Below, one piece after another: positions 6,080 to 56,377 of a stretch of DNA of 64,000 nucleotides. The position numbers and the translations under genes are program-made. Under the pieces are notes generated by a model. It saw only the letters and a list, made by a program, of their open reading frames with translations, was not told where the DNA came from and did not search any database. The stretch is taken from the NCBI RefSeq assembly GCF_000478275.1, contig NZ_ASJB01000028.1, positions 62,001 to 126,000 on the forward strand. Reading direction: 5' to 3'. Each line of letters opens with the position of its first letter. The stretch's first letter is position 1. Source of the stretch: Amycolatopsis orientalis DSM 40040 = KCTC 9412 (GTDB lineage: Bacteria > Actinomycetota > Actinomycetes > Mycobacteriales > Pseudonocardiaceae).

Positions 6080-6766
6080 TCAGGACGAGCAGCAGCCACC
6101 GGCGGGCGCGGCACCTTCGTAGGCGTCGTGCCAGTTCCACCACGCGTACGCCGGGGTCTGCGGGTACCCCTCCGGCGAGTCCTCCCACTCCTCCTGGCGC
6201 CCCAGCGCGGTGATGTCGAGGTAGCTCCAGGTGCTCCCCATCGCCTCGTCGCCGCGATCGTTGACGAAGTACGTCCGGAACACCTGGTCACCCTCGCGGA
6301 TGAAGGCGTTGGTGCCGTGCCATTCGCGGACACCGAAATCGACGTCGAAATCACCGGCGATCGTGTACCACGGCATCGTCCAGCCCATCCGCTTCTTCAG
6401 CCGCGCGAGATCCGCCTGCGATCCGCGTGAGGCGAAGGCCAGGGTGGTGTCGCGGGCGTTCAGGTGGGCGACGTGCGCGACCTGGTCGGCCACCAGCGAG
6501 CAGCCTTTGCAGGCGTGTTCGGGGAAACCGTCCACCCCGGGATCGAAGAACGCCCGGTAGACGATCAGCTGACGGCGTCCCTCGAACAGGTCGAGCAGGC
6601 TCACCTTTCCGGACGGTCCCTCGAACTCGTACGGCTTTTCGACCGCGACCCAGGGCATCCGGCGGCGCTCGGCGGCGAGCGCGTCACGGGCGCGGGTCAG
6701 CTCTTTTTCCTTCACCAGCAGGCGAAGCCGCGCTTCTTCCCATTCCGCCGGGGTGACCGTCTTCAT
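6080..6766 (-). CDS. DUF899 thioredoxin-like protein
   Basis: A 228-residue member of the DUF899 family, with a thioredoxin-like fold of unknown reaction. Recognisable parts are AAERRRMPWVAVEKPYEFEG near residue 32, a peroxiredoxin-like segment QLIVYRAFFDPG followed by HACKGCSLVADQVAHVAHLN (a CxxC pair), and GWTMPWYTIAGDFDVDFGV. The C-terminal tail ends GGCCSS. The ATG at 6764-6766 overlaps the stop of the SRPBCC gene (ATGA), placing it last in a four-gene operon headed by an ArsR-linked SRPBCC gene. A redox role is plausible but not shown. Confidence 0.88.
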   Translation of the reverse strand: MKTVTPAEWEEARLRLLVKEKELTRARDALAAERRRMPWVAVEKPYEFEGPSGKVSLLDLFEGRRQLIVYRAFFDPGVDGFPEHACKGCSLVADQVAHVAHLNARDTTLAFASRGSQADLARLKKRMGWTMPWYTIAGDFDVDFGVREWHGTNAFIREGDQVFRTYFVNDRGDEAMGSTWSYLDITALGRQEEWEDSPEGYPQTPAYAWWNWHDAYEGAAPAGGCCSS

Positions 6767-7224
6767 CGCGCCAGCTCCGCGGGCAGCACGCTTTGCCGGT
6801 TCGGCCGCCCCTCGCCGGTGGTGATCAGCGCGCGCAGGCTGGTGCCGACGTAGAACGTCCACGCCTTGTGACACACCTCGAAGCATTCGTACTCCGGCAC
6901 CAGGCCGTGATGCGTGAAGCGCGCTTCGGTCTTGCCGTCCTTCTCGGTGATCTCGAACGTGATCGTGGTGCCGACCCATTCGGTCTCGTCCCGGGTGAAG
7001 TCCAAGTGGTTTTCGAGGACCAGCCACGAGACCTTGCGGCCAGGCTCGGACTCCGTGATCCGCATCCGGCAGCGGTGGACCTCTTGGTAGTGGTAGTCGA
7101 ACTCGTCGCCGACGCGCACCGTGCCGCCGTCGACCTCTTCCGACCACCAGCCGCGGACGTCGGTGAAGGCGTCGTAGACCTGCCGCGGCGTCTGGTCGAC
7201 GGTGAAACTCGTCGTGAAGCTCAT
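6763..7224 (-). CDS. SRPBCC (AHSA1-like) domain protein
   Basis: A 153-residue single-domain START/Bet v1-like protein of the AHSA1 group. The N-terminal FTTSFTVDQTPRQVYDAFTD strand-helix, the central VSWLVLENHLDFTRDETEWV and the C-terminal helix KAWTFYVGTSLRALITTGEG match the helix-grip fold, which binds hydrophobic ligands. It overlaps both its upstream ArsR gene and the downstream DUF899 gene by four bases. The ligand is unknown. Confidence 0.87.
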   Translation of the reverse strand: MSFTTSFTVDQTPRQVYDAFTDVRGWWSEEVDGGTVRVGDEFDYHYQEVHRCRMRITESEPGRKVSWLVLENHLDFTRDETEWVGTTITFEITEKDGKTEARFTHHGLVPEYECFEVCHKAWTFYVGTSLRALITTGEGRPNRQSVLPAELAR

Positions 7225-7556
7225 GATGATCCCTCCAGATGGTCTTTCAAGGCGGCGAGCGGGCCGTCCCAGTCGCGGGCCAGCGCCGCCAGGAACTGCT
7301 GGGCGACCTGCATCGGGGCCGAGCGCAGCCGGTAGCGCACGCGGCGCCGCTCCCCCTGTTCCGGGGTCACCAGTCCGGCGTCGGTGAGCAGGGCGAGGTG
7401 CTTGGCGATGGCCTGCCGGGTGATGGGCAGGCGCTCGGCGAGATCGGTCGCCGTGGCGGGGCCGCCCGCGGCGAGCGTGGCGAGGATGCTCCGCCTGCTC
7501 GGGTCGGCCAGTGCGACGAAGACCTGCTCGGCGATCGCTTCGGTGTCAGGCGGCAT
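7221..7556 (-). CDS. ArsR-family transcriptional regulator
   Basis: A 111-residue winged-helix repressor: VFVALADPSRRSILATLAAG, then the recognition region DLAERLPITRQAIAKHLALL and the wing GERRRVRYRL. There is no CxC metal site, so it is of the SRPBCC-linked type rather than an arsenic sensor. Its start lies 11 bases inside the preceding SRPBCC gene. Autoregulation through the palindromes at 7995-8040 is likely. Confidence 0.9.
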   Translation of the reverse strand: MPPDTEAIAEQVFVALADPSRRSILATLAAGGPATATDLAERLPITRQAIAKHLALLTDAGLVTPEQGERRRVRYRLRSAPMQVAQQFLAALARDWDGPLAALKDHLEGSS

Positions 7557-7977
7557 CGAGGTATTCGATCAGTTCGCCCAACTCGGCCGCCCACCCCTTC
7601 GTGTTCCCTTCGAACGCGACGCGGTGGGCTTCGTCCGGAAGCTGCGAGAAGCCGCTCTCGACGACCGTGAGGCGGGTGCCCGCACCGACCGGTTCGAGGG
7701 TGAACTCGACGTAGGTCCGGCGGGGGTCGTCGTCGGGCAGGCCGTAGATCTGCCAGGTGAAGCCGAAGATCTCCGGCTCTTCGACGCGTTCGACGCGCAT
7801 GTTCGCCTTGTGCCCGTTGTCCCACTTCATCTCGGCGTCGCCGCCGGGCCGCAGGTCGATGGTCGCCTGGTTCCCGAACCAGGTGCCCAGTCCCTCGGCC
7901 GTGGTCAGCGCGGCCCAGACCTTGGCGGGCGGATGGGCGATCTCGACGGTGCGTTCGATGCGGTCGGGGAATCCCAT
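7546..7977 (-). CDS. SRPBCC (AHSA1-like) domain protein
   Basis: A 143-residue activator-of-Hsp90-homologue-like domain protein, first gene of the ArsR operon. MGFPDRIERTVEIAHPPAKV and WAALTTAEGLGTWFGNQATI form the N-terminal strand-helix-helix, and HRVAFEGNTKGWAAELGELI the long C-terminal helix. The ATG at 7975-7977 has GAGGAGG seven bases upstream and is preferred to a longer start at 7998, which would run into the operator stem. The ligand is unknown; the family often accompanies ArsR regulators in actinobacteria. Confidence 0.87.
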   Translation of the reverse strand: MGFPDRIERTVEIAHPPAKVWAALTTAEGLGTWFGNQATIDLRPGGDAEMKWDNGHKANMRVERVEEPEIFGFTWQIYGLPDDDPRRTYVEFTLEPVGAGTRLTVVESGFSQLPDEAHRVAFEGNTKGWAAELGELIEYLDAA

Positions 7978-8052: not shown

Positions 8053-9453
8053 TCAGGAGGCCGTGTACAGCGCGCCGAGGAACTCCAGCAGCAGCCGTTC
8101 CCGCAGCGAGCCGGGCGCGGCGGCCAGCAGTGCGTTGATCTCCGCCATCCGCGAAGGCAATCCGGCACCGTATCCGAGGCCCGCCGCCGCCAAGAGCCCG
8201 GCGAACTGTTCCGGAGTCAGCGTCCCGGGATCCAAGGCGCCGACGAACTCCGCCACCGTCGGGTCGACGACGACCGGGCCCGACTCGCGGGCGGCCGCCA
8301 CGGAAGCGGCGAGATCGGCCAGGAAGGCCTTCTCGCTCCCACGGTTCGCGGCCGTCACGGTCAGGTGCAGGTTCGCGGGCGACGACTCGTGGGCGAACTG
8401 GGGCTGGACGTACCAGCCGCGCTCACGCATCTCGTCCGCGACGGTGAACAGGTCGAAACCCGCGTCGGCGTCCACGGTGAACGCGAGCAGCGTCGACACC
8501 GGATCGCCGAGGACGCGCAGCCCGTCCAGCGCCTCGATGCCGGCGCGAATCTCCACGGCCGCCTCACGCGCGGCCGAAGCCAGCTTCACGTACCCCTCGT
8601 CGCCGAGATGACGCACGACCGCCCACGCCGCGGCGAGCGGGCCACCGGACCGCGTGCTCTGCAGCGTGGTGTTGAGCATCGTGTAGCCGGGCCAGTCGGC
8701 GCTGGCGAAGTACTGCGTGCGCCGCAGTCCGGCGTTGGCGTGCAAGAGAACCGACACGCCTTTCGGGCAGTAGGCGTATTTGTGCAGGTCCACCGAGACA
8801 CTGGTGACGCCGGGGACGTCGAAGCCGAACGGGCCGAGCCCCAGATACGGCAGGACCCAGCCGCCGATGCAGGCGTCCACATGGAACCGGACGCCGTCCA
8901 GCAGCGCCGCGATCTCCGGGATGGGGTCGAGGACGCCGTGGGCATACGACGGCGCGCTCGCGACGACGAGCACCGTGGTGTCGTCGACGGCGGCGGCCAT
9001 CGCCCCGGGAACCGCGCGGAAGGTCACCGGATCGACCGGCACCGGAAGCACGCGGACACCGAAGAAATGCGCCGCCTTGTGGAACGCGGCGTGCGCCGTC
9101 GTGGGCAGCACGATGCTCGGCGACGTCACCTCCGGCCGCGCGTCGCGGGCGGCCAGCACCGCGAGCATGCACGACTCCGTACCGCCCGAGGTCACCGAGC
9201 CGACCGTCTCCGCCGTGCCGCCCAGCAGCCGCGCGGCGGTGCCGACGAGGTCGTTCTCCATCCGCAGCAGGCTGGGGAACGCGGTGGGGTCGAGGCCGTT
9301 GGCCGACGACGCCAGCGCGTGCGCCGCCGCGCCGAGTTCGTCCACTTCGGACAGACCGCTGTCGTAGACATAGGCGAGCGTCCGGCCGCCGTGCGTCGGC
9401 AGATCGCCCGCGCGCAGTTCCCGCAGTTCCCTCAGGACGTCCTCGGCGGTCAC
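8053..9453 (-). CDS. PLP-dependent lyase of the sphingosine-1-phosphate lyase family
   Basis: A 466-residue fold-type-I PLP enzyme. Features shared with sphingosine-1-phosphate lyases are GSVTSGGTESCMLAVLAARD, FHVDACIGGWVLPYLG, the PLP lysine in SVDLHKYAYCPKGVSVLL, and TQYFASADWPGY with STRSGGPLAAAWAV. The family cleaves sphingoid-base phosphates to a fatty aldehyde and phosphoethanolamine; related glutamate or tyrosine decarboxylases share the fold. A C-terminal extension of about 70 residues follows the catalytic core. Translation starts at GTG 9451-9453, overlapping the MFS stop (GTGA). It closes the operon that begins with ceramidase and sphingomyelinase genes, which makes a sphingolipid role likely but unproven. 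Confidence 0.82.
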   Translation of the reverse strand: MTAEDVLRELRELRAGDLPTHGGRTLAYVYDSGLSEVDELGAAAHALASSANGLDPTAFPSLLRMENDLVGTAARLLGGTAETVGSVTSGGTESCMLAVLAARDARPEVTSPSIVLPTTAHAAFHKAAHFFGVRVLPVPVDPVTFRAVPGAMAAAVDDTTVLVVASAPSYAHGVLDPIPEIAALLDGVRFHVDACIGGWVLPYLGLGPFGFDVPGVTSVSVDLHKYAYCPKGVSVLLHANAGLRRTQYFASADWPGYTMLNTTLQSTRSGGPLAAAWAVVRHLGDEGYVKLASAAREAAVEIRAGIEALDGLRVLGDPVSTLLAFTVDADAGFDLFTVADEMRERGWYVQPQFAHESSPANLHLTVTAANRGSEKAFLADLAASVAAARESGPVVVDPTVAEFVGALDPGTLTPEQFAGLLAAAGLGYGAGLPSRMAEINALLAAAPGSLRERLLLEFLGALYTAS

Positions 9454-10754
9454 GACCGGCGCTCCAGCACCGACTTCCGGAGCAACGGGATGCCCAGCAC
9501 GATCAGCACGGCCGGGAGGATCGACGCGCCGAGCAGGATCGCCGTGAGCGCGCTGTCCGGCTGCGCGGCCTTGGCGTCGAGACTGGACTGGTACCCGCCG
9601 AACTGCAGCACCAGCCCCCACAACCCCGGCCCGAGCGCCAGCCCCAGCGTCTCCGACGCGGTCCAGACCCCGGCGGCGACCCCGGCCCTGGTCTCCCCGG
9701 TCCGCTCCTCCTCGTCGCTGATCAGATCCGGCAGGATCGCCAGCGGGAACACCGAGATCCCCGCGTACCCGACGCCGCAGAAGGCGACGAACACCATCGT
9801 GACCGCGAACGGGAACACCTGGGCGCCGAGCAGCCCCAGCAGGCCGACGCCGAACGCGGCGGTGGCGATGCGGAAACCGGCGAGCTTCCCGAGGCTCGCG
9901 CCGAGCCTCGGCCACAGGGGCATGGTCAGCAGGGCCGGGCCGACGAAACCGACGAACAGGACCGTCGAATAGCCGGAGCTGCCGAGGATCCGCTCGGCGA
10001 AGAACGGGATCGCGGCCAGCACCGTGCCGATCCCGAGGGCCTGGATGAAATAGACCCCGAGCAGCCAGCGGAACGGCCGCCACTGCGCCAGCGTCCGGAG
10101 CAGCTCGCGCGGGCTCACCGTGTTCGGCCGCAGGGCGCCGACGGGGGCGTCCTTCAGGCCGAAGTACACGCCGAGCGTCGCGAGCAGGATGATCACGGCG
10201 ATGAACACGCCCATCAGCCGGTACCCGGCGATACCGCCGACGAGGTCGGTGATCGCGGGCGCGCCGCCGCCGGAGACCAGGATGGCGACCGCGAGGAAGC
10301 CGATCCGGACGCTGGTCAGCTTCGTGCGTTCCTCGGCCGAGTCGGTCAGCTCGGCGGGCAGTGCGTTGAACGGCACCTGGAAGAACGCGTACGCGGTGGC
10401 GCACAACAGGAACGCGACGACGACGTAGATCGCGTCGGGCACCGGGTCGCCGAAGCCGGGGTGCGCGAACAGCGCCGCGAAGAGGACCGAGACGCCGATG
10501 CCGCCGTAGAGCAGGAATCGGCGTCGGCTGCCGGTGCGGACCATGTCCGCGTCCGAAAGCCGTCCCGCGATCGGGTTGAACAGCACGTCCCACGCCTTGG
10601 GAACGAACACGATCACGCCGGCCACACCCGCCGGGACGGCCATCGTGTCGGTGAGGTACTTCAGGAGGAGCAGGCCGGGAACCGTGCCGAAGGCGCCGGT
10701 GACGAACGAGCCGAGCGAGTAGCGATACCTCGTCCGTGCTGGCAGGGCTGCCAT
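9450..10754 (-). CDS. MFS transporter (MelB/GPH-like)
   Basis: A 434-residue membrane carrier with about 12 predicted helices. The N-terminal RYSLGSFVTGAFGTVPGLLL and VFVPKAWDVLFNPIAGRLSD, with SDADMVRTGSRRRFLLYGGI after helix 2, match the glycoside-pentoside-hexuronide branch of the MFS. The ATG at 10752-10754 has GAGGAGG upstream; an earlier start would add a tail unlike the family. It is cotranscribed with secreted ceramidase and sphingomyelinase-like genes upstream and the PLP lyase downstream, so it may import a breakdown product. The substrate is unknown. Confidence 0.85.
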   Translation of the reverse strand: MAALPARTRYRYSLGSFVTGAFGTVPGLLLLKYLTDTMAVPAGVAGVIVFVPKAWDVLFNPIAGRLSDADMVRTGSRRRFLLYGGIGVSVLFAALFAHPGFGDPVPDAIYVVVAFLLCATAYAFFQVPFNALPAELTDSAEERTKLTSVRIGFLAVAILVSGGGAPAITDLVGGIAGYRLMGVFIAVIILLATLGVYFGLKDAPVGALRPNTVSPRELLRTLAQWRPFRWLLGVYFIQALGIGTVLAAIPFFAERILGSSGYSTVLFVGFVGPALLTMPLWPRLGASLGKLAGFRIATAAFGVGLLGLLGAQVFPFAVTMVFVAFCGVGYAGISVFPLAILPDLISDEEERTGETRAGVAAGVWTASETLGLALGPGLWGLVLQFGGYQSSLDAKAAQPDSALTAILLGASILPAVLIVLGIPLLRKSVLERRS

Positions 10755-10788
10755 GATCCTCCTCGAGGCGATTCTCCCGATGAAGGCC

Positions 10789-11748
10789 TCAGTATTGGAT
10801 CTTGGCCACCACCGGGTAGTGGTCGGAGGGAATCGTGCCACCGTCGTAATGCACGAGCTGTACCGGGCCGACAGCGGCGAGTGGACGGCCGCCGGCCCGC
10901 ACGGCTCCGACGTAGTCGAGCGAGTCGCGGTAGGTCGCCGGGACGGACTTCGCGGCCTGCGGGTTGGTCACCGCGTCGAAGGTGTACGCGCCTTCGCCCG
11001 CGGTACGGAGGACACCATCGAGGAAGGCCTCACCCTGCTGGATCTGGGTCCGGCCGAGGGAGTCCTTGCGCGTTTGTCCCGCCCAGTACTCGATGTTGAG
11101 GTCGCCTGCCACGACGACCGGCTCAGTGGCGGGCGCGTATTTCGTGACCAGGTCCCGGATCTCGCCGAGCTGCGCCATCCGGACGTCATGCGCCTTCGGC
11201 AGCGTCTCCGGTCCCTCGTCGGCCTGCATATGGGTGCCCGCGATCCAGAGCGGTTTCCCGTTCACGACGAGCCGGGCGAGCGCGGCTCCCTTGTTGGACA
11301 GGTAATCCGCCGTGCCGGAGTAGGAATTGCCGAAGACCAGCTGGTGCTTCTCGGTCACCGGCGCCTTGCTCAGCACGGTCACCCCGCCGTTGACCACGAT
11401 GGGGGAATTCGAGCAGTTCCCGTTCACCGTGGTCCAGCCCGGCGACGTCGTGCAGTACTGGCCGACGAGCGGCGTCTGGTACGGCCAGACGTCCTTCAGC
11501 CGGTTCCGCAGCTCCTCCGCCTGGGCGCTGAACGCCTCGTCGAGGACGACGACGTCGGCGTCGTTCGCGCGGATGACGGCCTCGGCGGCGCGGGCCCTGG
11601 CCTGTTTGTCCGAGGTGTTCGGACTGGCGATCCACGGGAGCTGCCAGATGTTGAACGCCATGACCTTCACCGAAACCGCGGCTTGCGCGGGGACGGCGGA
11701 TCCGGCGAACAGGGCGGCGGCGATGGCGAGTACGGCGAGCTTCCGCAC
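10789..11748 (-). CDS. Secreted sphingomyelinase-like phosphodiesterase
   Basis: A 319-residue exported enzyme of the endonuclease/exonuclease/phosphatase superfamily, resembling bacterial neutral sphingomyelinases. A Sec signal peptide (RKLAVLAIAAALFAGSAVPA, cleaved after AQA) precedes VKVMAFNIWQLP (Asn), VVLDEAF (Glu), IAGTHMQAD (His), VVVAGDLNIEYW (Asp, Asn), DSLDYV and the catalytic SDHYPVV. Substrate would be sphingomyelin, giving ceramide and phosphocholine. The start is GTG at 11746-11748 with GAAGGG upstream. It lies 17 bases after the ceramidase gene, which would act on its product. Activity on other phospholipids cannot be excluded. Confidence 0.86.
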   Translation of the reverse strand: MRKLAVLAIAAALFAGSAVPAQAAVSVKVMAFNIWQLPWIASPNTSDKQARARAAEAVIRANDADVVVLDEAFSAQAEELRNRLKDVWPYQTPLVGQYCTTSPGWTTVNGNCSNSPIVVNGGVTVLSKAPVTEKHQLVFGNSYSGTADYLSNKGAALARLVVNGKPLWIAGTHMQADEGPETLPKAHDVRMAQLGEIRDLVTKYAPATEPVVVAGDLNIEYWAGQTRKDSLGRTQIQQGEAFLDGVLRTAGEGAYTFDAVTNPQAAKSVPATYRDSLDYVGAVRAGGRPLAAVGPVQLVHYDGGTIPSDHYPVVAKIQY

Positions 11749-11765
11749 AGAAGACCCTTCCGGTG

Positions 11766-13781
11766 TCAGGAGACGACGAACGTCCGCGAAGTCCCGCTGA
11801 ACGCGGAGATCGCCCCGTTCCAGCCGTTCTTCCAGTTGCCGAAGTGGACCACGCGGTATTTGCCGATCGGGGCGTTCGGGGGGATCTTCCAGTGGACGAC
11901 GGCTTTCGATTCGGCGACGAACGTCCGCGCCCAGCGGTACTTCGTGTCCCAGTCGCCGTCGTCGGCGTGACGCACCCACTTGCCGTCGACCAGCCGCTGG
12001 ATCTCCAGGAACGTGCCGCCGCGCCGGAGGTCGTTCTTCGGATGCCCGGTGACGAACTCGACCGCGACCTGCTCACCGCGCGCGTAGGTGCTCTTCGCGT
12101 CGACCAGGACGTCACCGAAGCCCTTGAACGCGGGCGCGCTGTCGAAGACGACCCCGGGCTGGAAGTTGATCAGCTTCCCGCGCAGGTCCCTCGGTGTCGG
12201 CCCGTGTGGCACCGTCGTCCCGGCCTTCATCGCGGCGGCCAGCTTGGCGAATTCCTGCTGGTACGCGGGAAGTGTGTAGCGGCCGAAGAGCGTCGACGCG
12301 CCTTCGTACTGCTGCGAGTCGTACTCCTCCGGGGTGGTGACGTACTGGCTGTAGGCGTTGGCGTAGCCCTGGACGAGCACGTTCTCCAGCGGGACGCCGA
12401 GTTCCGCGGCGACGGTCCGGCGCAGGCGCAGCCCGGACACGATGGTCAGCTCGGCGGGTACGGCCACGAGGTGCAGCTGTCCGATGCGGACGAGCTGCAG
12501 CGGCAGGACCTCGGGCGCCCACGGATACGGCTTCATCGCACCGAACGGGACGGCGACGACCTTCGGCGCCTGCGCGTCGGCGAGGGCCTGCGGGATCGGC
12601 GCGTCGATGCCGCCGAGCCAGTCGATGAACGGGTTCTTCACGCCTTCCGGGAGCGGCAGCCCCGGGCCGTCCTCCCGGCTTCCGGCCAGCATCGACACCC
12701 CGATCGCGGCCGTGCAGGTGTGCTGCGGCCGCCCGTTCGGGGTGTACTTCGCGTCGACCGCGACGTCGGACATGTCGACGTAGCACATACGGTGGTCGAC
12801 GCCGCCTGTCACGGCCTCGGCGGCCGCGTCGAAGGCGCTTTTCGCGGCGCGGAACTGGAGATCGCCGATGGTGCGGGTGTTCTCGAACTCCGTCTCCGGC
12901 GTGCCGGGTTCGAGGTTCAGGTTCGGGCTCATGTCGCCGGTGTTGGTCTGCGGGAACGCGGCGACGAACCGCGGGTTCCCGTCGAGGTACCGCACGCCCG
13001 CGTGGTCGTGCTCCCATTCGTAGGCGGCGTACCCCTTGTTGTCGCCGCTGATCAGGTGGTTGCCGTTGCTCATCGACGTCCCGTGCGTGGCGAACCAGCT
13101 GATCGCGCCGATGTCGGTGCCGCCCTGGCTGAACCGCAGCACCGTGACGGCGGGGTCGATCGCCTGCGGGAAGTGATCCTTGTCCGCCTTGGGGTTCAGG
13201 TCGAAGGCCGCGCGGGAGCGGTTGACGCTCGCCGTGGTCAGTTCGGCGCGGCCGAGCCGGATCGACCCGGGCGCGAGGTTCGCGTGCGCCCGGCTGATCG
13301 CCTCGAAGATGCCGTCGACGACGGCGTCGTAGACCTCCTGCTGGAAGCCGAGGATCGCCAGATCGTAGGCGGCGTAATGGGAATCGCCGCCGCACGCGGA
13401 GTGGGTGTGCGTGGCGTTGAGGAGCACGTTCTGCTCGGTGTACAGGTCGCCGTACGCGGCCTGGAGCTTGCGCAGCACACCCTGGTGGACGGACTGGAAC
13501 AGCGCGCCGAGGTCGGCGGTCACGAACGCGATCCGCTTGGCGCCGTCGTCGACCACGAAGGCCCGCGCCCGGGTGCGCAGGTGGATGCCGGCGGTCTGCT
13601 GCTGCGGCATCGAGTAGCCCATCATGCCGTTCTCGGCGGCCGGGCCGGTGACGTCGGAGATCCCGGCACCGACGCGGAAACCCGCTGATGGCGCCGCTTG
13701 TGCCCGGTGGGCGCCGAGCACACCGGCCGCGACCGGCAACGCCGCCGCACCCGCGAGAACCCGCCTCCGGCTCACCGCCAT
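11766..13781 (-). CDS. Secreted neutral ceramidase (Tat signal)
   Basis: A 671-residue neutral/alkaline ceramidase that would hydrolyse ceramide to sphingosine and fatty acid outside the cell. The N-terminus MAVSRRRVLAGAAALPVAAG is a twin-arginine signal. Zinc ligands are seen in NATHTHSACGG and WFATHGTSMSNGNHLISGDN, and the catalytic serine in NTGDMSPNLNLEPG. The C-terminal beta domain (about residues 530-671: FGDVLVDAKSTYARGEQVAV, FLEIQRLVDGKWV) is also typical. The start at 13779-13781 follows GGGAGG; an upstream ATG would add 13 residues before the Tat motif. It is the first gene of the proposed sphingolipid operon, with a perfect palindrome in its promoter region. Confidence 0.92.
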   Translation of the reverse strand: MAVSRRRVLAGAAALPVAAGVLGAHRAQAAPSAGFRVGAGISDVTGPAAENGMMGYSMPQQQTAGIHLRTRARAFVVDDGAKRIAFVTADLGALFQSVHQGVLRKLQAAYGDLYTEQNVLLNATHTHSACGGDSHYAAYDLAILGFQQEVYDAVVDGIFEAISRAHANLAPGSIRLGRAELTTASVNRSRAAFDLNPKADKDHFPQAIDPAVTVLRFSQGGTDIGAISWFATHGTSMSNGNHLISGDNKGYAAYEWEHDHAGVRYLDGNPRFVAAFPQTNTGDMSPNLNLEPGTPETEFENTRTIGDLQFRAAKSAFDAAAEAVTGGVDHRMCYVDMSDVAVDAKYTPNGRPQHTCTAAIGVSMLAGSREDGPGLPLPEGVKNPFIDWLGGIDAPIPQALADAQAPKVVAVPFGAMKPYPWAPEVLPLQLVRIGQLHLVAVPAELTIVSGLRLRRTVAAELGVPLENVLVQGYANAYSQYVTTPEEYDSQQYEGASTLFGRYTLPAYQQEFAKLAAAMKAGTTVPHGPTPRDLRGKLINFQPGVVFDSAPAFKGFGDVLVDAKSTYARGEQVAVEFVTGHPKNDLRRGGTFLEIQRLVDGKWVRHADDGDWDTKYRWARTFVAESKAVVHWKIPPNAPIGKYRVVHFGNWKNGWNGAISAFSGTSRTFVVS

Positions 13782-13800: not shown

Positions 13801-13825
13801 CGAACATGAACCGACTTCATGTTCG
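13801..13825. promoter_or_regulatory. Palindromic operator upstream of ceramidase operon
   Basis: CGAACATGAA at 13801-13810 and TTCATGTTCG at 13816-13825 form a perfect 10-bp inverted repeat with a five-base spacer, 20 bases before the ceramidase start. The form fits a TetR-type repressor site. No regulator gene lies in this operon, so the binding protein is unknown. Confidence 0.5.
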
Positions 13826-13927: not shown

Positions 13928-13973
13928 CTCGTGAGTGGTAATGACGGTTCTAACCGTCATTACCACTCACGAG
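13928..13973. repeat. Intergenic hairpin, family A
   Basis: Two perfect 22-bp arms (CTCGTGAGTGGTAATGACGG plus TT, and its complement) are separated by CT. It ends six bases before the stop codon of the LLM gene and is a probable terminator. Near-identical copies occur at 29563 and 56332. Confidence 0.75.
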
Positions 13974-13979
13974 AGCGGG

Positions 13980-15005
13980 CTACGAAAGGGTCTCCGCGAC
14001 CTTCGTGAGCGTGGCGGCATCGCCCCGCAGCAGTAACGTGGTCACCACGGTCTCCTCCCAGGCGGCGAGTTCGTCGCGGATCTTCTCCGCCGGTCCGATC
14101 AGGGAGGTGTCCTCGACCAGCGACGTCGGGATCGCGGCGGTCGCCTCGTCCTTCCGTCCGGCCAGATACAGCTCCTGGACCTTGTCGGCGACGTCCTCGT
14201 ATCCCATCCGGGCGAAGACGTCGTGGTGGAAGTTGACCGATTTCGCGCCCATGCCACCGATGTAGAGCGCCAGCGACGGTTTGATCCAGCTCGCCGCCTC
14301 CTCGACGTCGTCATGGACGAGGACCGGGACGGACGCGGCGACCTCGAAATCGTCGAAACCGTGCCGGGCGCCAGGGCGCGAGAATCCCTCCTGGAGCGCG
14401 GCCCGGTAGAAGCCGTCGCTCTTGGGCGAGAAGAACAGCGGGAGCCAGCCGTCGCAGATCTCCGCCGAGAGCGCCACGTTCTTCGGGCCCTCGGCGGCGA
14501 GGAAGATCGGGATCTCCTCGCGGAACGGGTGCACTGTGGACTTGAGCGGCTTCCCCAGTCCGGTCCCGCCCCGCAGCGGGAGCTGGAAGTGCTGTCCGTC
14601 GTGGGTCACCGGCGCTTCCCGCGCGACGACCTTCCGCACGATGTCGACGTACTCACGCGTGCGGGCCAGCGGCTTCGGATACGGCTGCCCGTACCAGCCT
14701 TCGACCACCTGCGGCCCGGACGCGCCGAGCCCGAGCACGAACCGGCCGCCGGACAGGTGATCCAGCGTCAGCGCGTGCATGGCCGTCGCGGTCGGGGTGC
14801 GCGCCGACATCTGGACGATGTTGGTGCCGAGCTTGATCCGGCTGGTCGACGCACCCCACCAGGCCAGCGGGGTGAAGGCGTCCGAACCGTAGCCCTCGGC
14901 GGTCCACACGGAGTCGAAGCCGAGTTCTTCGGCCTTCAGAACAGCGTCCAGCGCGCCCTCGGGCGGGCCGGAGGACCAGTAACCGAGGTGGTAACCCAGC
15001 TTCAT
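13980..15005 (-). CDS. LLM-class F420-dependent oxidoreductase
   Basis: A 341-residue luciferase-like TIM-barrel protein. MKLGYHLGYW at the N-terminus, AEELGFDSVWTAEGYGSDAF, IKLGTNIVQMSARTPTATAM and DHLSGGRFVLGLGASGPQVV match the F420-dependent branch (MSMEG-type). It would transfer hydride between reduced F420 and an unknown substrate. It follows the MpaB-type oxygenase gene by 12 bases on the same strand and is probably under the TetR regulator at 16029. Substrate and pathway are unknown. Confidence 0.88.
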   Translation of the reverse strand: MKLGYHLGYWSSGPPEGALDAVLKAEELGFDSVWTAEGYGSDAFTPLAWWGASTSRIKLGTNIVQMSARTPTATAMHALTLDHLSGGRFVLGLGASGPQVVEGWYGQPYPKPLARTREYVDIVRKVVAREAPVTHDGQHFQLPLRGGTGLGKPLKSTVHPFREEIPIFLAAEGPKNVALSAEICDGWLPLFFSPKSDGFYRAALQEGFSRPGARHGFDDFEVAASVPVLVHDDVEEAASWIKPSLALYIGGMGAKSVNFHHDVFARMGYEDVADKVQELYLAGRKDEATAAIPTSLVEDTSLIGPAEKIRDELAAWEETVVTTLLLRGDAATLTKVAETLS

Positions 15006-15017
15006 CGAGGCTCCTCG

Positions 15018-15938
15018 TCAGACGTTCGGTGAGTAGTGCTCGGGTTTGCCCCGCTCCGAAAGCGGCGGAAGGTTCCTGGCGGGAGTCTCGACCAACGGGG
15101 CGTCCGGGGCCAGCTCGCCACGCTCCCGGCGCCAGCCCGCCCTGGCGCGCGGATGGTAACGGAGATCGTGAGGGACCAGCTTGAACGCCGCGTTGATCAG
15201 CTTTCCCACGCGGCGGTGCCGTCGCTCGTCGCGGGCGGTCCAGGTGTGGCCGAGCCGTTCGCGGATCGGCTGGTCGTACATGCCGACGGTCAGCCAGACG
15301 AAGTTCCGCGCCACGCTCCCGCGGACGAGGTTCCAGGCGAGGTCGGGCAGCCAGGGCAGGAAATGCGGCTTGGCGATGTCCTGGATCTCGAGGACGTCGC
15401 GGGTGGCCTTGTTGTCCTCCAGGACCTCCTCGCACATGCGCTTCCAGTACAGCTGGAAGTCCTCCCAGGACGCCGGCACCGGCCGCATGCTCATGCCGTA
15501 CATCTCGTACCACTGGACGTGCTCGTCGAACAGCTTCCGTTTCTCGGCCTCGCCGATACCGCCGATGAAGTTGTCGGCGATGAGGATCGCGCTCATGAAG
15601 AACGTCGCATGCGCCCAGTAGAAGGTGTCCGGGTTGAGCGCGTGATAGCGCCGGCCGTGTTTGTCGACGCCCTTGATCCGATCGTGGTAGCCACGCACCT
15701 CAAGCGCGGTCCGCCGGGCGCGCGGACCGTCGTAGATCACTCCCCCGATCGGGTACAGCGAGCGGAACAGCCGCTGCCAGCGCTCCTCGAAGAACCGCGA
15801 ATGCTCCTCCACGCCCGCGCCCAGTTCGGGGTGCATGTTCTGCATGGATCCGGCCCAGAGCGCGATGAGCAGCCCTCGCCAGTCACCGAAGTACTTCCAG
15901 GTCAGGGAATCCGGTCCCAACGGCCGCGGCTGTGTCAT
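15018..15938 (-). CDS. MpaB-type oxygenase (DUF2236)
   Basis: A 306-residue alpha-helical protein of the DUF2236/MpaB family, which includes heme-dependent oxygenases such as rubber-cleaving Lcp. Characteristic parts are LWAGSMQNMHPELGAGVEEH, the IYDGPRARRTALEVRGYHDR segment, NPDTFYWAHATFFMSAILIA and MYGMSMRPVPASWEDFQLYW. The ATG at 15936-15938 has GAGGAGACC upstream. Longer starts would run through the divergent operator region and into the TetR gene's complement. It forms an operon with the LLM oxidoreductase, suggesting oxidative conversion of one lipophilic substrate. Confidence 0.85.
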   Translation of the reverse strand: MTQPRPLGPDSLTWKYFGDWRGLLIALWAGSMQNMHPELGAGVEEHSRFFEERWQRLFRSLYPIGGVIYDGPRARRTALEVRGYHDRIKGVDKHGRRYHALNPDTFYWAHATFFMSAILIADNFIGGIGEAEKRKLFDEHVQWYEMYGMSMRPVPASWEDFQLYWKRMCEEVLEDNKATRDVLEIQDIAKPHFLPWLPDLAWNLVRGSVARNFVWLTVGMYDQPIRERLGHTWTARDERRHRRVGKLINAAFKLVPHDLRYHPRARAGWRRERGELAPDAPLVETPARNLPPLSERGKPEHYSPNV

Positions 15939-15966
15939 CCCCGGTCTCCTCACTGAGCTGGTTAAA

Positions 15967-16014
15967 CTGACCACAACTGTTGTCAGGTTAAAGTTGACAA
16001 CGGCCGTAGTCAAC
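15967..16014. promoter_or_regulatory. Two palindromic operators in the MpaB/TetR divergent promoter
   Basis: CTGACCACAACTGTTGTCAG (15967-15986) and a 22-base palindrome at 15993-16014 reading GTTGAC...GTCAAC with one mismatched pair. The two sites share TGAC/GTCA edges and lie in the 90-base gap between divergent starts, as expected for an autoregulated TetR gene. Confidence 0.6.
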
Positions 16015-16028
16015 AAGAGGAGCCGATC

Positions 16029-16622
16029 ATGGCCGGCCGCAGCTGGGCAGGCACGACGCTGGACGACCGCAAGGCCGCCCGCCGGGGACAACTCGTCGAG
16101 GCGGGTCTCGACCTGCTCGGCACCCAGGGCAGCGCCGGGGTGAGTGTCCGCGCGGTCTGCCGCCACGCCAAGCTCACCGAGCGGTACTTCTACGAGAGCT
16201 TCACCGACCGCGAGGAACTGGTCGTCGCGGTCTACGAGTTCATCGCCGAGCAGGCGCGGCAGGCCCTGGTCGACGCGGTCAGCGACACGGCCGCCCCCGC
16301 GGACAGGGCGAAGGCCGCCGTCCGCGCCTTCGTCGAACTGATGCTCGACGACCCGCGCAAGGGCCGCGTGCTCCTGCTCGCGCCGATCACGGATCCCGCG
16401 CTGACCACCCGCGGGATCGCACTCCTGCCCTCCTTCGCCGAGTTGGTCAGCGGGCAGCTCTCCCACGGCGACGCGGCCGAACGGCAGATGATCTCGATCG
16501 GGCTGGTCGGCGCGCTGAGCAACGTCTTCATCGCCTACCTCGACGGCTCGCTCAAGGTGAGCCGCGACCGCCTGATCGACCACTGCGTCCGCCTCGTCCT
16601 CGGCGCCGACCGTCAGCCCTGA
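16029..16622 (+). CDS. TetR-family transcriptional regulator
   Basis: A 197-residue repressor. The helix-turn-helix spans about residues 15-62: [20 protein letters not shown] and [20 protein letters not shown] with [13 protein letters not shown]. The C-terminal ligand domain shows no diagnostic family motif. AAGAGGAG lies eight bases before the ATG. It is divergent from the MpaB/LLM operon and most likely controls it through the palindromes in between. Its last ten bases overlap the 3' end of the convergent aldolase gene. Confidence 0.9.
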
Positions 16623-17647
16623 CCGCGTTCGGCGACCAGCTGCAGGGCGATGTCGATGATCATGTCCTCCTGCCCGCCCACGTACTTCGCGGCGCCGACG
16701 CGGTACAGGATTTCGTGCGCGGGGACGTCATAGCGTTCGGCGGCGCGCTCCGCGTGCAGCAGGAAACTCGAGTACACGCCCGCGAAACCCTGCACGATCG
16801 ACGACCGGTCCATCACCGGCAGCCGCGTGATGTAGGGCTTCACGACGTTCTCGGCCGCGTCCATCAGCACGTCCTTGTCGACGCCGGTGCGGATCCCGAG
16901 CCGTTCGAACGTCGCCGCGAGCACCTCCGTCGGCGAATTGCCCGCGCCGGCGCCGAGCGCGACGAGTGAGCCGTCGATCTGCCGGGCGCCCGCGCGGTAG
17001 GCCAGCACGGAGTTCGCGACACCGAAGCTCAGGTTCTGGTGCCCGTGATAGCCGACCTGCGCCTCGTCCCCGAACTCCGCCACCAGCGCGGCGATCCGGT
17101 CGGCGGACTCCTCCAGGATCAGCGCCCCGGCCGAGTCGACGACGTACACGCACCGGCATCCGGCGTCGACCATGATCCGGCCCTGTTTCGCCAGCGCCTC
17201 CGGTGTGGACATATGGGACAGCATCAGGAAACCGACCGTCTCCAGCCCGAGGTCCCGCGCCGCGCCGAAGTGCTGGACGGAGACGTCGGCCTCGGTGCAG
17301 TGGGTCGCGATCCGGACCGCGCCTGCGCCGAGATCGGCCGCCACCCGCAGGTCGCCGACCGTGCCGAGGCCGGGCAGGAGCAGCACGGCGATCTTCGCGT
17401 GCCGCGCCTCGTCGACCGCCGCCTCGATCAGTTTCCGTTCGTCGACCAGGGAAAAGCCGTAGTTGAACGTCGAGCCGCCGAGACCGTCGCCGTGGCTGAC
17501 CTCGATCAGCGAGACGCCCGCGTCGTCCAGCGCCCGCACGGTGTCGCGCACGTTCTTCTCGGTGAACTGGTGCGCCATCGCGTGGCTGCCGTCGCGCAGG
17601 CTCGTGTCGACCAGCCGGACCTCGCGGTCCACGTCGTCCCAGCTCAT
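16613..17647 (-). CDS. 4-hydroxy-2-oxovalerate aldolase
   Basis: A 344-residue DmpG/MhpE/HsaF-type aldolase that splits 4-hydroxy-2-oxoacids to pyruvate and an aldehyde. The N-terminal [20 protein letters not shown] holds the metal-binding Asp. [18 protein letters not shown] and [20 protein letters not shown] (metal-binding HxH) follow, and the C-terminal [20 protein letters not shown] helices form the interface with the dehydrogenase partner. Its ATG overlaps the stop of the acylating dehydrogenase gene (ATGA), as usual for this channelling pair. No 2-hydroxypentadienoate hydratase gene is next to it. Confidence 0.95.
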
Positions 17648-18546
17648 GCCGCCACCCCCTGCGTGGCCAGCAGGTCGCCGATGCGGGCGGCCGCGGCCGT
17701 CATGATGTCGAGGTTGCCCGCGTACTTCGGCAGGAAGTCCCCGTTCCCGGCGACTTCGAGGAACACCGCGACCCGAGCCTGTCCGCTCCACCCCGGCCTC
17801 GGCGGGTCGTACTGCGGATCCGCCTTGAGCGTGTAGCCCGGCACGTAGCCCTGGACCGTCTCGACCATCCGGTGGATGGATTCGGTCACCGCGCCGAAGT
17901 CCGCGTCCGGGTCGATCGCGCAGAACACCGTGTCCCGCATGATCATCGGGGGCTCGACGGGGTTGATGATGATGATCGCCTTGCCGCGGCCCGCTCCCCC
18001 GACGAGTTCGATCCCGCGCGCCGTGGTCGCGGTGAACTCGTCGATGTTCGCCCGCGTCCCCGGGCCCGCCGAACGCGACGAGACGGACGCGACGATCTCG
18101 GCGTAGGGCACCGGCGTCACCCGCGACACCGCTCGCACGATCGGGATCGTGGCCTGGCCGCCGCAGGTGATGAGGTTGACGTTCGGCACGTCCAGCCGTT
18201 CGGGCAGGCCGACGGCCGGGCAGGTGAACGGACCGACCGCGGCCGGGGTCAGGTCGATCGCGCGGATCCCGGCGGCGGCGTAGCGCGGCGCGTTCGCCAG
18301 ATGCGCCTTCGCCGAGGTCGCTTCGAAGACGAGGTCCGGCAGTTCGTCGCGGGACAGCAGCCAGTCGACACCTTCCGCCGACGTCTCCAGCCCCAGCTGC
18401 GCGGCCTTCGCCAGCCCGTCCGAGGCCGGGTCCACGCCGACCATGTACCGCACTTCGACGTGTTCGCTGCGCTTCAGCTTCGCGAGCAGGTCGGTGCCGA
18501 TGTTCCCGGGACCGACGATCGCGGCCACCGCTTTCCGTTGCGCCAT
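17644..18546 (-). CDS. Acetaldehyde (propanal) dehydrogenase, acylating
   Basis: A 300-residue CoA-acylating aldehyde dehydrogenase (MhpF/HsaG type) that turns the aldolase's aldehyde into acyl-Co[21 protein letters not shown] is the NAD-binding loop, [20 protein letters not shown] carries the catalytic Cys, and [20 protein letters not shown] the conserved SxxSxGPGTRxNIDE motif. The ATG is at 18544-18546, 41 bases from the divergent IclR-type regulator, which probably controls the pair. Confidence 0.95.
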
Positions 18547-29562: not shown

Positions 29563-29612
29563 GTCTCGTGAGTGGTAATGACGGTTCTAACCGTCATTAC
29601 CACTCACGAGAC
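29563..29612. repeat. Intergenic hairpin, family A
   Basis: Perfect 24-bp arms (29563-29586 and 29589-29612) with the two-base centre CT, eleven bases after the MbtH stop codon. It is a likely terminator of the 23-kb siderophore operon and the second copy of family A. Confidence 0.75.
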
Positions 29613-56331: not shown

Positions 56332-56377
56332 CTCGTGAGTGGTAATGACGGTTAGAACCATCGTTACCACTCACGAG
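56332..56377. repeat. Intergenic hairpin, family A
   Basis: Arms 56332-56353 and 56356-56377 pair over 22 bp with two mismatches (ACGGTT against AACCATCG), centre AG. It is the third, most diverged copy of family A and lies just after the PPOX gene. Confidence 0.7.

What the first reader, a model, noticed from the sequence alone, without database searches (positions are those of the whole stretch)
8053..13781. Candidate sphingolipid-degradation operon: ceramidase, sphingomyelinase, carrier and S1P-lyase-like enzyme
Four tightly spaced same-strand genes (gaps of 17 and 34 bases and a 4-base overlap) encode, in order, an exported ceramidase, an exported sphingomyelinase-like enzyme, an MFS carrier and a cytosolic PLP enzyme with S1P-lyase motifs. 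Together they could turn host or environmental sphingomyelin into fatty acid, phosphocholine and an imported sphingoid base for cleavage. Most actinobacteria do not make sphingolipids, so this would be a scavenging or interaction pathway. No sphingosine kinase is seen, so the lyase substrate is open.
Basis: partly seen in the sequence, partly recalled or inferred. Interest (0 to 1): 0.72.

Follow-up and report, generated by a model that had tools for sequence, protein, structure and literature searches.

The report
Amycolatopsis sphingolipid-breakdown operon with unusual lyase
In soil bacteria of the genus Amycolatopsis, two secreted enzymes of kinds that cut up sphingolipids sit in one apparent operon with a carrier and a cell-internal cutting enzyme whose phosphate-gripping site is altered, which suggests that the bacteria take in and cleave the freed sphingoid base, possibly without phosphorylating it first.

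Summary
The four genes, spacings and families are as described. The reading as a sphingolipid-scavenging operon is partly supported. Comparison shows two modules. Carrier + lyase is older and common: adjacent in 37 of 40 strong-lyase genomes among 120 of the family, and in other families, mostly without sphingolipid genes nearby. Ceramidase, with or without the sphingomyelinase-like gene, stands before the carrier in 21 of 21 Amycolatopsis loci found by ceramidase, 0 of 59 others. A palindrome, perhaps an operator, precedes this ceramidase in four genera. Against: ceramidase and lyase do not co-occur across the 120 genomes (p = 0.56), and Tamaricihabitans has both secreted enzymes without carrier or lyase. 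The lyase is an S1P-lyase relative with its PLP site kept, but two of five substrate-phosphate residues are changed (His to Asp, Ala to Tyr) in 53 of 53 carrier-linked copies; the carrier lacks a Lys tied to phosphate binding in MFSD2A/B. Most novel reading: a lyase for unphosphorylated sphingoid bases. No activity is shown here.

The parts
11766..13781 (-). Neutral ceramidase (PF04734 + PF17048), exported by eye (Tat-like N-terminus)
   Evidence: motif residues present
10789..11748 (-). Sphingomyelinase-C-like phosphodiesterase (PF03372; TIGR03395 below cut-off), exported by eye
   Evidence: seven active-site residues kept in 16 of 16 copies
9450..10754 (-). MFS carrier of the GPH/MFS_2 family, nearest folds MFSD2A and MelB
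8053..9453 (-). PLP-dependent lyase related to S1P lyase, with Tyr28 and Asp55 at the positions of StSPL Ala103 and His129
13802..13824 (.). Perfect palindrome GAACATGAA-N5-TTCATGTTC, 20 bases before the ceramidase start; candidate operator
13928..13973 (.). 46-base hairpin of a large repeat family between the F420-oxidoreductase gene and the ceramidase; that it separates two transcripts is inference

Best explanation
A catabolic operon for sphingolipids of other organisms, built from two modules. Outside the cell, the sphingomyelinase-like enzyme removes a phosphorylated head group and the ceramidase frees the sphingoid base and a fatty acid. The MFS carrier brings the base in, and the PLP enzyme cleaves it by a retro-aldol reaction to a long-chain aldehyde and ethanolamine (or phosphoethanolamine if a kinase acts first). 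Shown by sequence: gene order, families, active-site residues, conservation in Amycolatopsis, a shared palindrome before the ceramidase. Inferred: co-transcription, substrates, direction of transport, regulator, and whether the lyase takes the free or the phosphorylated base; I think the free base about as likely or somewhat more so.
For: Ceramidase directly precedes (sphingomyelinase-like gene and) carrier in 21 of 21 Amycolatopsis loci among the best 80 of 104 found with the ceramidase; the lyase follows in 19 (A. anabasis has none there; the A. rhizosphaerae contig ends). In the family sample all 5 genomes of the genus label g1 have all four genes together. Catalytic residues kept. Lyase nearest to S1P lyases (252 bits against 75 for MfnA) with PLP residues kept. 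Foldseek ranks MFSD2A first (TMq 0.74-0.82; MelB 0.75-0.77), and MFSD2B exports S1P (PMC5862976, abstract and passages). The palindrome precedes the ceramidase in 34 of 34 loci of Amycolatopsis, Saccharopolyspora, Tamaricihabitans and Kribbella; 19 of 2000 random 300-base stretches score as high, real sites included.
Against: Carrier + lyase occurs in many genomes without ceramidase nearby; two of four sampled genomes of label g26 (G026, G092) have the pair but no ceramidase match. Ceramidase in 22 of 40 strong-lyase genomes and 38 of 80 others, fragments counted (p = 0.56). Tamaricihabitans has the secreted pair alone; A. anabasis lacks the lyase at the locus. The palindrome is absent before stand-alone carriers but for three weak matches of 59. 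No EutB for ethanolamine use. Ceramidase, sphingomyelinase and carrier score under the NCBIfam cut-offs. MelB folds almost as well as MFSD2A.
Confidence: 0.58

Rival explanations
1. Carrier and lyase handle a substrate that is not a sphingolipid (for example another beta-hydroxy-amine or an amine to be decarboxylated), and the ceramidase cassette was merely inserted upstream and shares the transcript.
For: The pair is spread without sphingolipid genes nearby; lyase relatives at E<=1e-55 in 93 of 345 class genomes, ceramidase at E<=1e-60 in 31 of 345; no co-occurrence in 120 genomes; phosphate-site changes are the same with or without ceramidase; Tamaricihabitans keeps only the secreted pair.
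Against: Adjacency is kept in 21 of 21 Amycolatopsis loci although the content varies; the lyase is closest to S1P lyases and the carrier's first-ranked fold is a lysolipid carrier.
Confidence: 0.3
2. Same pathway, but the imported base is first phosphorylated by a DAGK-family lipid kinase encoded elsewhere, and the lyase is an S1P lyase in function. (A variant of the main reading; the odds overlap.)
For: Four DAGK_cat hits in the genome; three of five phosphate-site residues kept (Tyr105, Asn126, Lys317 equivalents); an S1P lyase of Burkholderia has Gln instead of His at position 129 and is active (PMC6148460, section read).
Against: Asp at the His129 position and Tyr at Ala103 in 53 of 53 linked copies, while the five S1P lyases of Table 3 have His or Gln and Ala or Thr; mutating the yeast His made less healthy yeast (same section); no kinase is linked; DAGK_cat is near-universal (13 of 14 control genomes).
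Confidence: 0.27
3. The operon serves detoxification or attack (removing antimicrobial sphingoid bases, or damaging eukaryotic membranes) rather than nutrition. (About purpose; it can hold together with the main reading.)
For: Sphingoid bases inhibit bacteria, and P. aeruginosa sphBC promote sphingosine metabolism to a non-toxic product (PMC11893366, abstract and passages); A. anabasis has the secreted pair and carrier without lyase at the locus.
Against: A secreted ceramidase would generate the toxic base, so detoxification alone does not explain it; nothing here tests host damage.
Confidence: 0.2

Closest known systems
Pseudomonas aeruginosa sphingosine-responsive SphR regulon (ceramidase, sphBCD)
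   Same: Secreted neutral ceramidase (the closest solved relative; its source organism is recalled) and metabolism of the freed sphingosine (PMC11893366, abstract and passages; PMC5150637, title and start of abstract in a listing). That the head-group enzyme PlcH belongs to it is recalled.
   Different: There a periplasmic oxidase SphC and cytochrome SphB; no carrier-lyase pair in the passages seen. Here the hydrolases lie in one row with carrier and lyase, and the candidate operator is a 23-base palindrome.
Bacterial S1P lyases (Symbiobacterium StSPL; Legionella; Burkholderia)
   Same: PLP lysine, PLP aspartate, His/Cys sandwich, and Tyr105/Asn126/Lys317 equivalents.
   Different: His129 to Asp and Ala103 to Tyr; a clade apart from StSPL (the other solved S1P lyases were not in the tree); nearly always beside an MFS gene.
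MFSD2A/MFSD2B lysolipid carriers and MelB (GPH family)
   Same: Fold, PF13347 for the own protein, Asp at the Asp93/Asp55 position in 59 of 59.
   Different: The Lys436 position of MFSD2A (suggested to touch the substrate phosphate; PMC5862976, passages) is Thr in 51 of 53 linked copies, preceded by a Glu in 59 of 59; Asp97/Asp59 is Asn in 47 of 53.

Membership tests
Neutral ceramidase (PF04734/PF17048) | Both domains over the Pfam cut-offs | tested here: met
   592.5 and 182.9 bits
Neutral ceramidase (NF041649 equivalog) | Score over 1200 bits | tested here: not met
   674 bits
Neutral ceramidase | Metal ligands and serine nucleophile in their motifs | tested here: met
   Own protein has all; H, H, H, E, Y in 81 of 81 rows, Ser in 75 of 81. 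Roles recalled.
Bacterial sphingomyelinase C | Active-site Asn, Glu, His, Asp, Asn, Asp, His | tested here: met
   16 of 16 rows; roles and numbering recalled from B. cereus SMase
Bacterial sphingomyelinase C (TIGR03395 equivalog) | Score over 248.2 bits | tested here: not met
   127.2 bits; activity on sphingomyelin itself is open
S1P lyase | Closest solved relatives are S1P lyases rather than decarboxylases | tested here: met
   252 against 75 bits
S1P lyase | PLP-binding residues (StSPL K311, D274, H201, C276, G168, T169, H310) | tested here: met
   All kept in the own protein and in 53 of 53 linked copies; cup residue S353 is Thr in the own protein and in 46 of 53, Ser in 7
S1P lyase | Substrate-phosphate residues (Y105, H129, A103, N126, K317) | tested here: not met
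   3 of 5 kept; H129 to D, A103 to Y. For this reason not filed as an S1P lyase proper
S1P lyase | Cleaves S1P | not testable with these tools
   needs an enzyme assay
GPH:cation symporter (TIGR00792) | Score over 231.35 bits | tested here: not met
   177.3 bits; PF13347 met with 261.4 bits

The most novel reading that the evidence does not exclude
The carrier-linked lyase clade is a phosphorylation-independent sphingoid-base lyase: Asp at the His129 position may pair with the kept Lys317 and stand in for the substrate phosphate, and the carrier, lacking the phosphate-contacting Lys and having an invariant Glu beside that place, would import the free cationic base. If so, a two-gene unit spread over several actinobacterial families would be a route of sphingosine breakdown that needs no kinase.
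Probability: 0.27. Interest if true: 0.8.

Novelty: new variant of a known kind. Interest (0 to 1): 0.5.

Why it matters
If true, it gives an extracellular-to-cytosolic route of sphingolipid breakdown in one actinobacterial operon, and the only genomic clue found here to the substrate of a widespread carrier-lyase pair (lyase relatives, not all of this clade, in 93 of 345 class genomes; carrier beside the lyase in 22 of the 35 class loci in which a lyase was called). None of the papers listed by my ten searches of the open-access library (one search listed 25 of 869, one search listed 12 of 25) describes such an operon in its title or the shown start of its abstract; most subscription papers are not held.

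Tried and rejected
Rejected: amino-acid decarboxylase identity as first reading (MfnA and GAD score far below S1P lyases). Rejected: genome-wide co-occurrence as support (Fisher p = 0.56). Rejected: the palindrome as a general regulator site of the carrier-lyase pair. Other near-matches to the palindrome were looked at and showed no common gene to my eye, so the regulator is unknown. Partners of stand-alone carrier-lyase pairs: those looked at were unrelated or housekeeping genes (by eye; two proteins checked with Pfam). The AlphaFold2 model of the lyase had mean pLDDT 51.4 from 14 close sequences and was not used. A weak second PF04734 hit in the genome was not followed.

Limits. Gene calls come from my own codon-usage caller, which gave no lyase in 5 of the 40 class loci fetched (L127, L139, L142, L148, L150); these are left out of counts. 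Of the 40 strong lyases of the family sample (own included) 34 were read, and the 40 class loci were picked by hand from the match list. The ceramidase loci are the best 80 of 104 and were found by ceramidase, so they say nothing of Amycolatopsis without one; neighbours were sought with tblastn E<=1e-20 within the fetched flanks (8 kb at most, less on short contigs). 'Strong' means 45% identity or more. In one search the start of two loci (L212, L226) was misplaced. The StSPL numbering was placed by alignment to a PDB chain stretch. The Lys436 column is uncertain by one or two residues, but the own protein has no Lys in that stretch. Both trees are rooted at the midpoint for drawing only.
Full report
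What is there. The window lies in an Amycolatopsis-like genome: G000 shares its genus label with G015 and G107, whose contig lengths (561193 and 230700) equal those of A. regifaucium and A. azurea contigs (inference). On the minus strand lie ceramidase 13781-11766, sphingomyelinase-like 11748-10789, MFS carrier 10754-9450 and PLP lyase 9453-8053, with gaps of 17 and 34 bases and a 4-base overlap. Upstream are an F420-dependent oxidoreductase of the Rv3520c subfamily (over cut-off), an MpaB-type oxygenase, a TetR regulator on the other strand, a 4-hydroxy-2-oxovalerate aldolase and an acylating acetaldehyde dehydrogenase; I recall such genes from mycobacterial cholesterol catabolism. Downstream are AHSA1, ArsR-like and DUF899 genes, in part shared with the three other loci of the genus read.

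Are the enzymes intact? Ceramidase: 1.3e-186 to the solved bacterial neutral ceramidase. Of 81 aligned rows, 81 keep the motif residues H, H, H, E, Y; 75 keep the Ser and six have Thr. Sphingomyelinase-like: seven of seven active-site residues in 16 of 16 rows, but only about half of the TIGR03395 cut-off, so its head-group preference is open. Soil sources could be fungal or plant inositol-phosphate ceramides as well as sphingomyelin (inference).

Two modules. In 120 genomes drawn from the family, 40 (own included) have a strong lyase, and the carrier lies next to it in 37; it is elsewhere in G030, G119 and G078, and four more genomes have the carrier without a strong lyase. In the class sample I fetched 40 loci; of the 35 in which a lyase was called, 22 have the carrier adjacent, 13 of these with a 4-base overlap. 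The pair stands between different genes in different families. In 21 of the 37 family loci in which a carrier was called, the Rv3520c-type gene lies upstream as here. The ceramidase lies between that gene and the carrier in this genus (directly in three of four loci read, own included; G015 has a 409-aa gene in between) and in G113 and G064; the other two sampled genomes of their genus label, G026 and G092, have no ceramidase match.

Named relatives. A scan of genome contigs (84,980 species) with the ceramidase gave 104 relatives, best 80 kept. All 21 Amycolatopsis loci have ceramidase, then the sphingomyelinase-like gene in 14, then the carrier; the lyase follows in 19. A. anabasis has a 218-aa gene in its place, and the A. 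rhizosphaerae contig ends. None of the 59 other loci has carrier or lyase within its flanks. Tamaricihabitans has ceramidase and sphingomyelinase-like gene only, and its genome (G018) gave no carrier or lyase match. On a ceramidase tree of 41 of the 80 loci, Saccharopolyspora, Kribbella and Tamaricihabitans copies fall among Amycolatopsis copies (midpoint root, some weak forks), so the gene has probably moved between genera or left the operon.

Regulation. A perfect 9-5-9 palindrome ends 20 bases before the ceramidase start. Variants of GAACGTGAA-N5-TTCACGTTC begin 21 to 69 bases before the ceramidase in 34 of 34 loci of Amycolatopsis (21), Saccharopolyspora (11), Tamaricihabitans and Kribbella, scoring 13 to 18 of 18; the other 46 loci score 12 or less, though 17 of 17 Lentzea have a related form at a constant place. 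In 2000 random 300-base stretches of the same loci 19 scored 13 or more, real sites included. In G018, G025, G063 and G091 the only place within two mismatches lies at the ceramidase; G000, G085, G107, G064 and G113 have further places, and the reversed-pattern control gave matches only in G018. A weight matrix trained on the ceramidase sites scores 22-32 at ceramidases (partly circular) and 12 or more at only 3 of 59 carriers. So in Amycolatopsis the pair seems to have come under ceramidase control. I read this, with the kept adjacency, as the best sign of a functional link.

Lyase substrate. Table 3 of PMC6148460 (section read) lists substrate-phosphate residues Y105, H129, A103, N126, K317 of StSPL. 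On 69 lyases, the 53 carrier-linked copies all have Tyr at 103 and Asp at 129, and keep the other three and the PLP residues, except that the PLP-cup Ser353 is Thr in 46. Of 16 unlinked copies six are Leu/Asn, three Ser or Thr/Gln, one Asn/Tyr, four Tyr/Asp, and two had gaps there. The 57 Tyr/Asp copies and G030 form one clade (100/100) apart from StSPL. The five S1P lyases of the table have His or Gln at 129, never Asp; the same section says that changing this His in yeast gave less healthy yeast. In the carrier, the Lys suggested to touch the substrate phosphate in MFSD2A, and needed in MFSD2B (PMC5862976, passages), is Thr in 51 of 53 linked copies, next to a Glu in 59 of 59. MelB, a sugar carrier, also has a Lys there (alignment), so its loss may concern cation coupling instead. 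The changes fit a free, unphosphorylated base, but Lys317 is kept and Gln at 129 is compatible with S1P cleavage, so this is a hypothesis.

Against. Ceramidase occurs in 22 of 40 strong-lyase genomes and in 38 of 80 without, fragments counted (p = 0.56). The genome has no EutB match and has four DAGK_cat hits, a family found in 13 of 14 controls. The carrier model (pLDDT 81.9) fits MelB (TMq 0.75-0.77) nearly as well as MFSD2A (0.74-0.82). There is no datum here on activity, transport or expression.

Verdict. An Amycolatopsis sphingolipid-degradation operon is the best single reading (0.58). It is a new combination of known enzyme kinds, with a lyase variant whose substrate is the interesting open point.

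Noticed in passing
window 13928-13973, 29565-29610, 56332-56377: A 46-base palindromic element whose ends read CTCGTGAGTG occurs three times in the window; the 22-base arm of the first has 310 forward and 306 reverse matches within three mismatches in the genome, 0 for the reversed control. A large repeat family.
   Followed up: partly
L144, L146, L147: S1P-lyase-like genes with Gln at the His129 position lie directly upstream of a gene cluster c50 of the FGGY carbohydrate-kinase family (gaps -8, -4 and 1; one member checked with Pfam).
   Followed up: partly
ceramidase rows (loci): Six of 81 ceramidase rows have Thr where the others have the serine that I take for the nucleophile.
   Followed up: no
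window 13980-18546: The operon follows an Rv3520c-type F420 oxidoreductase, an MpaB-type oxygenase, a TetR regulator, a 4-hydroxy-2-oxovalerate aldolase and an acylating acetaldehyde dehydrogenase; the carrier-lyase pair lies next to this cluster in about half of the family loci read.
   Followed up: partly
window 6080-7977: Downstream cassette of AHSA1, ArsR-like, AHSA1-like and DUF899 genes, shared in part by other members of the genus.
   Followed up: no
G063, G091, G067, G116 (L076-L079): A close relative of the carrier is present without a strong lyase beside it or elsewhere.
   Followed up: no
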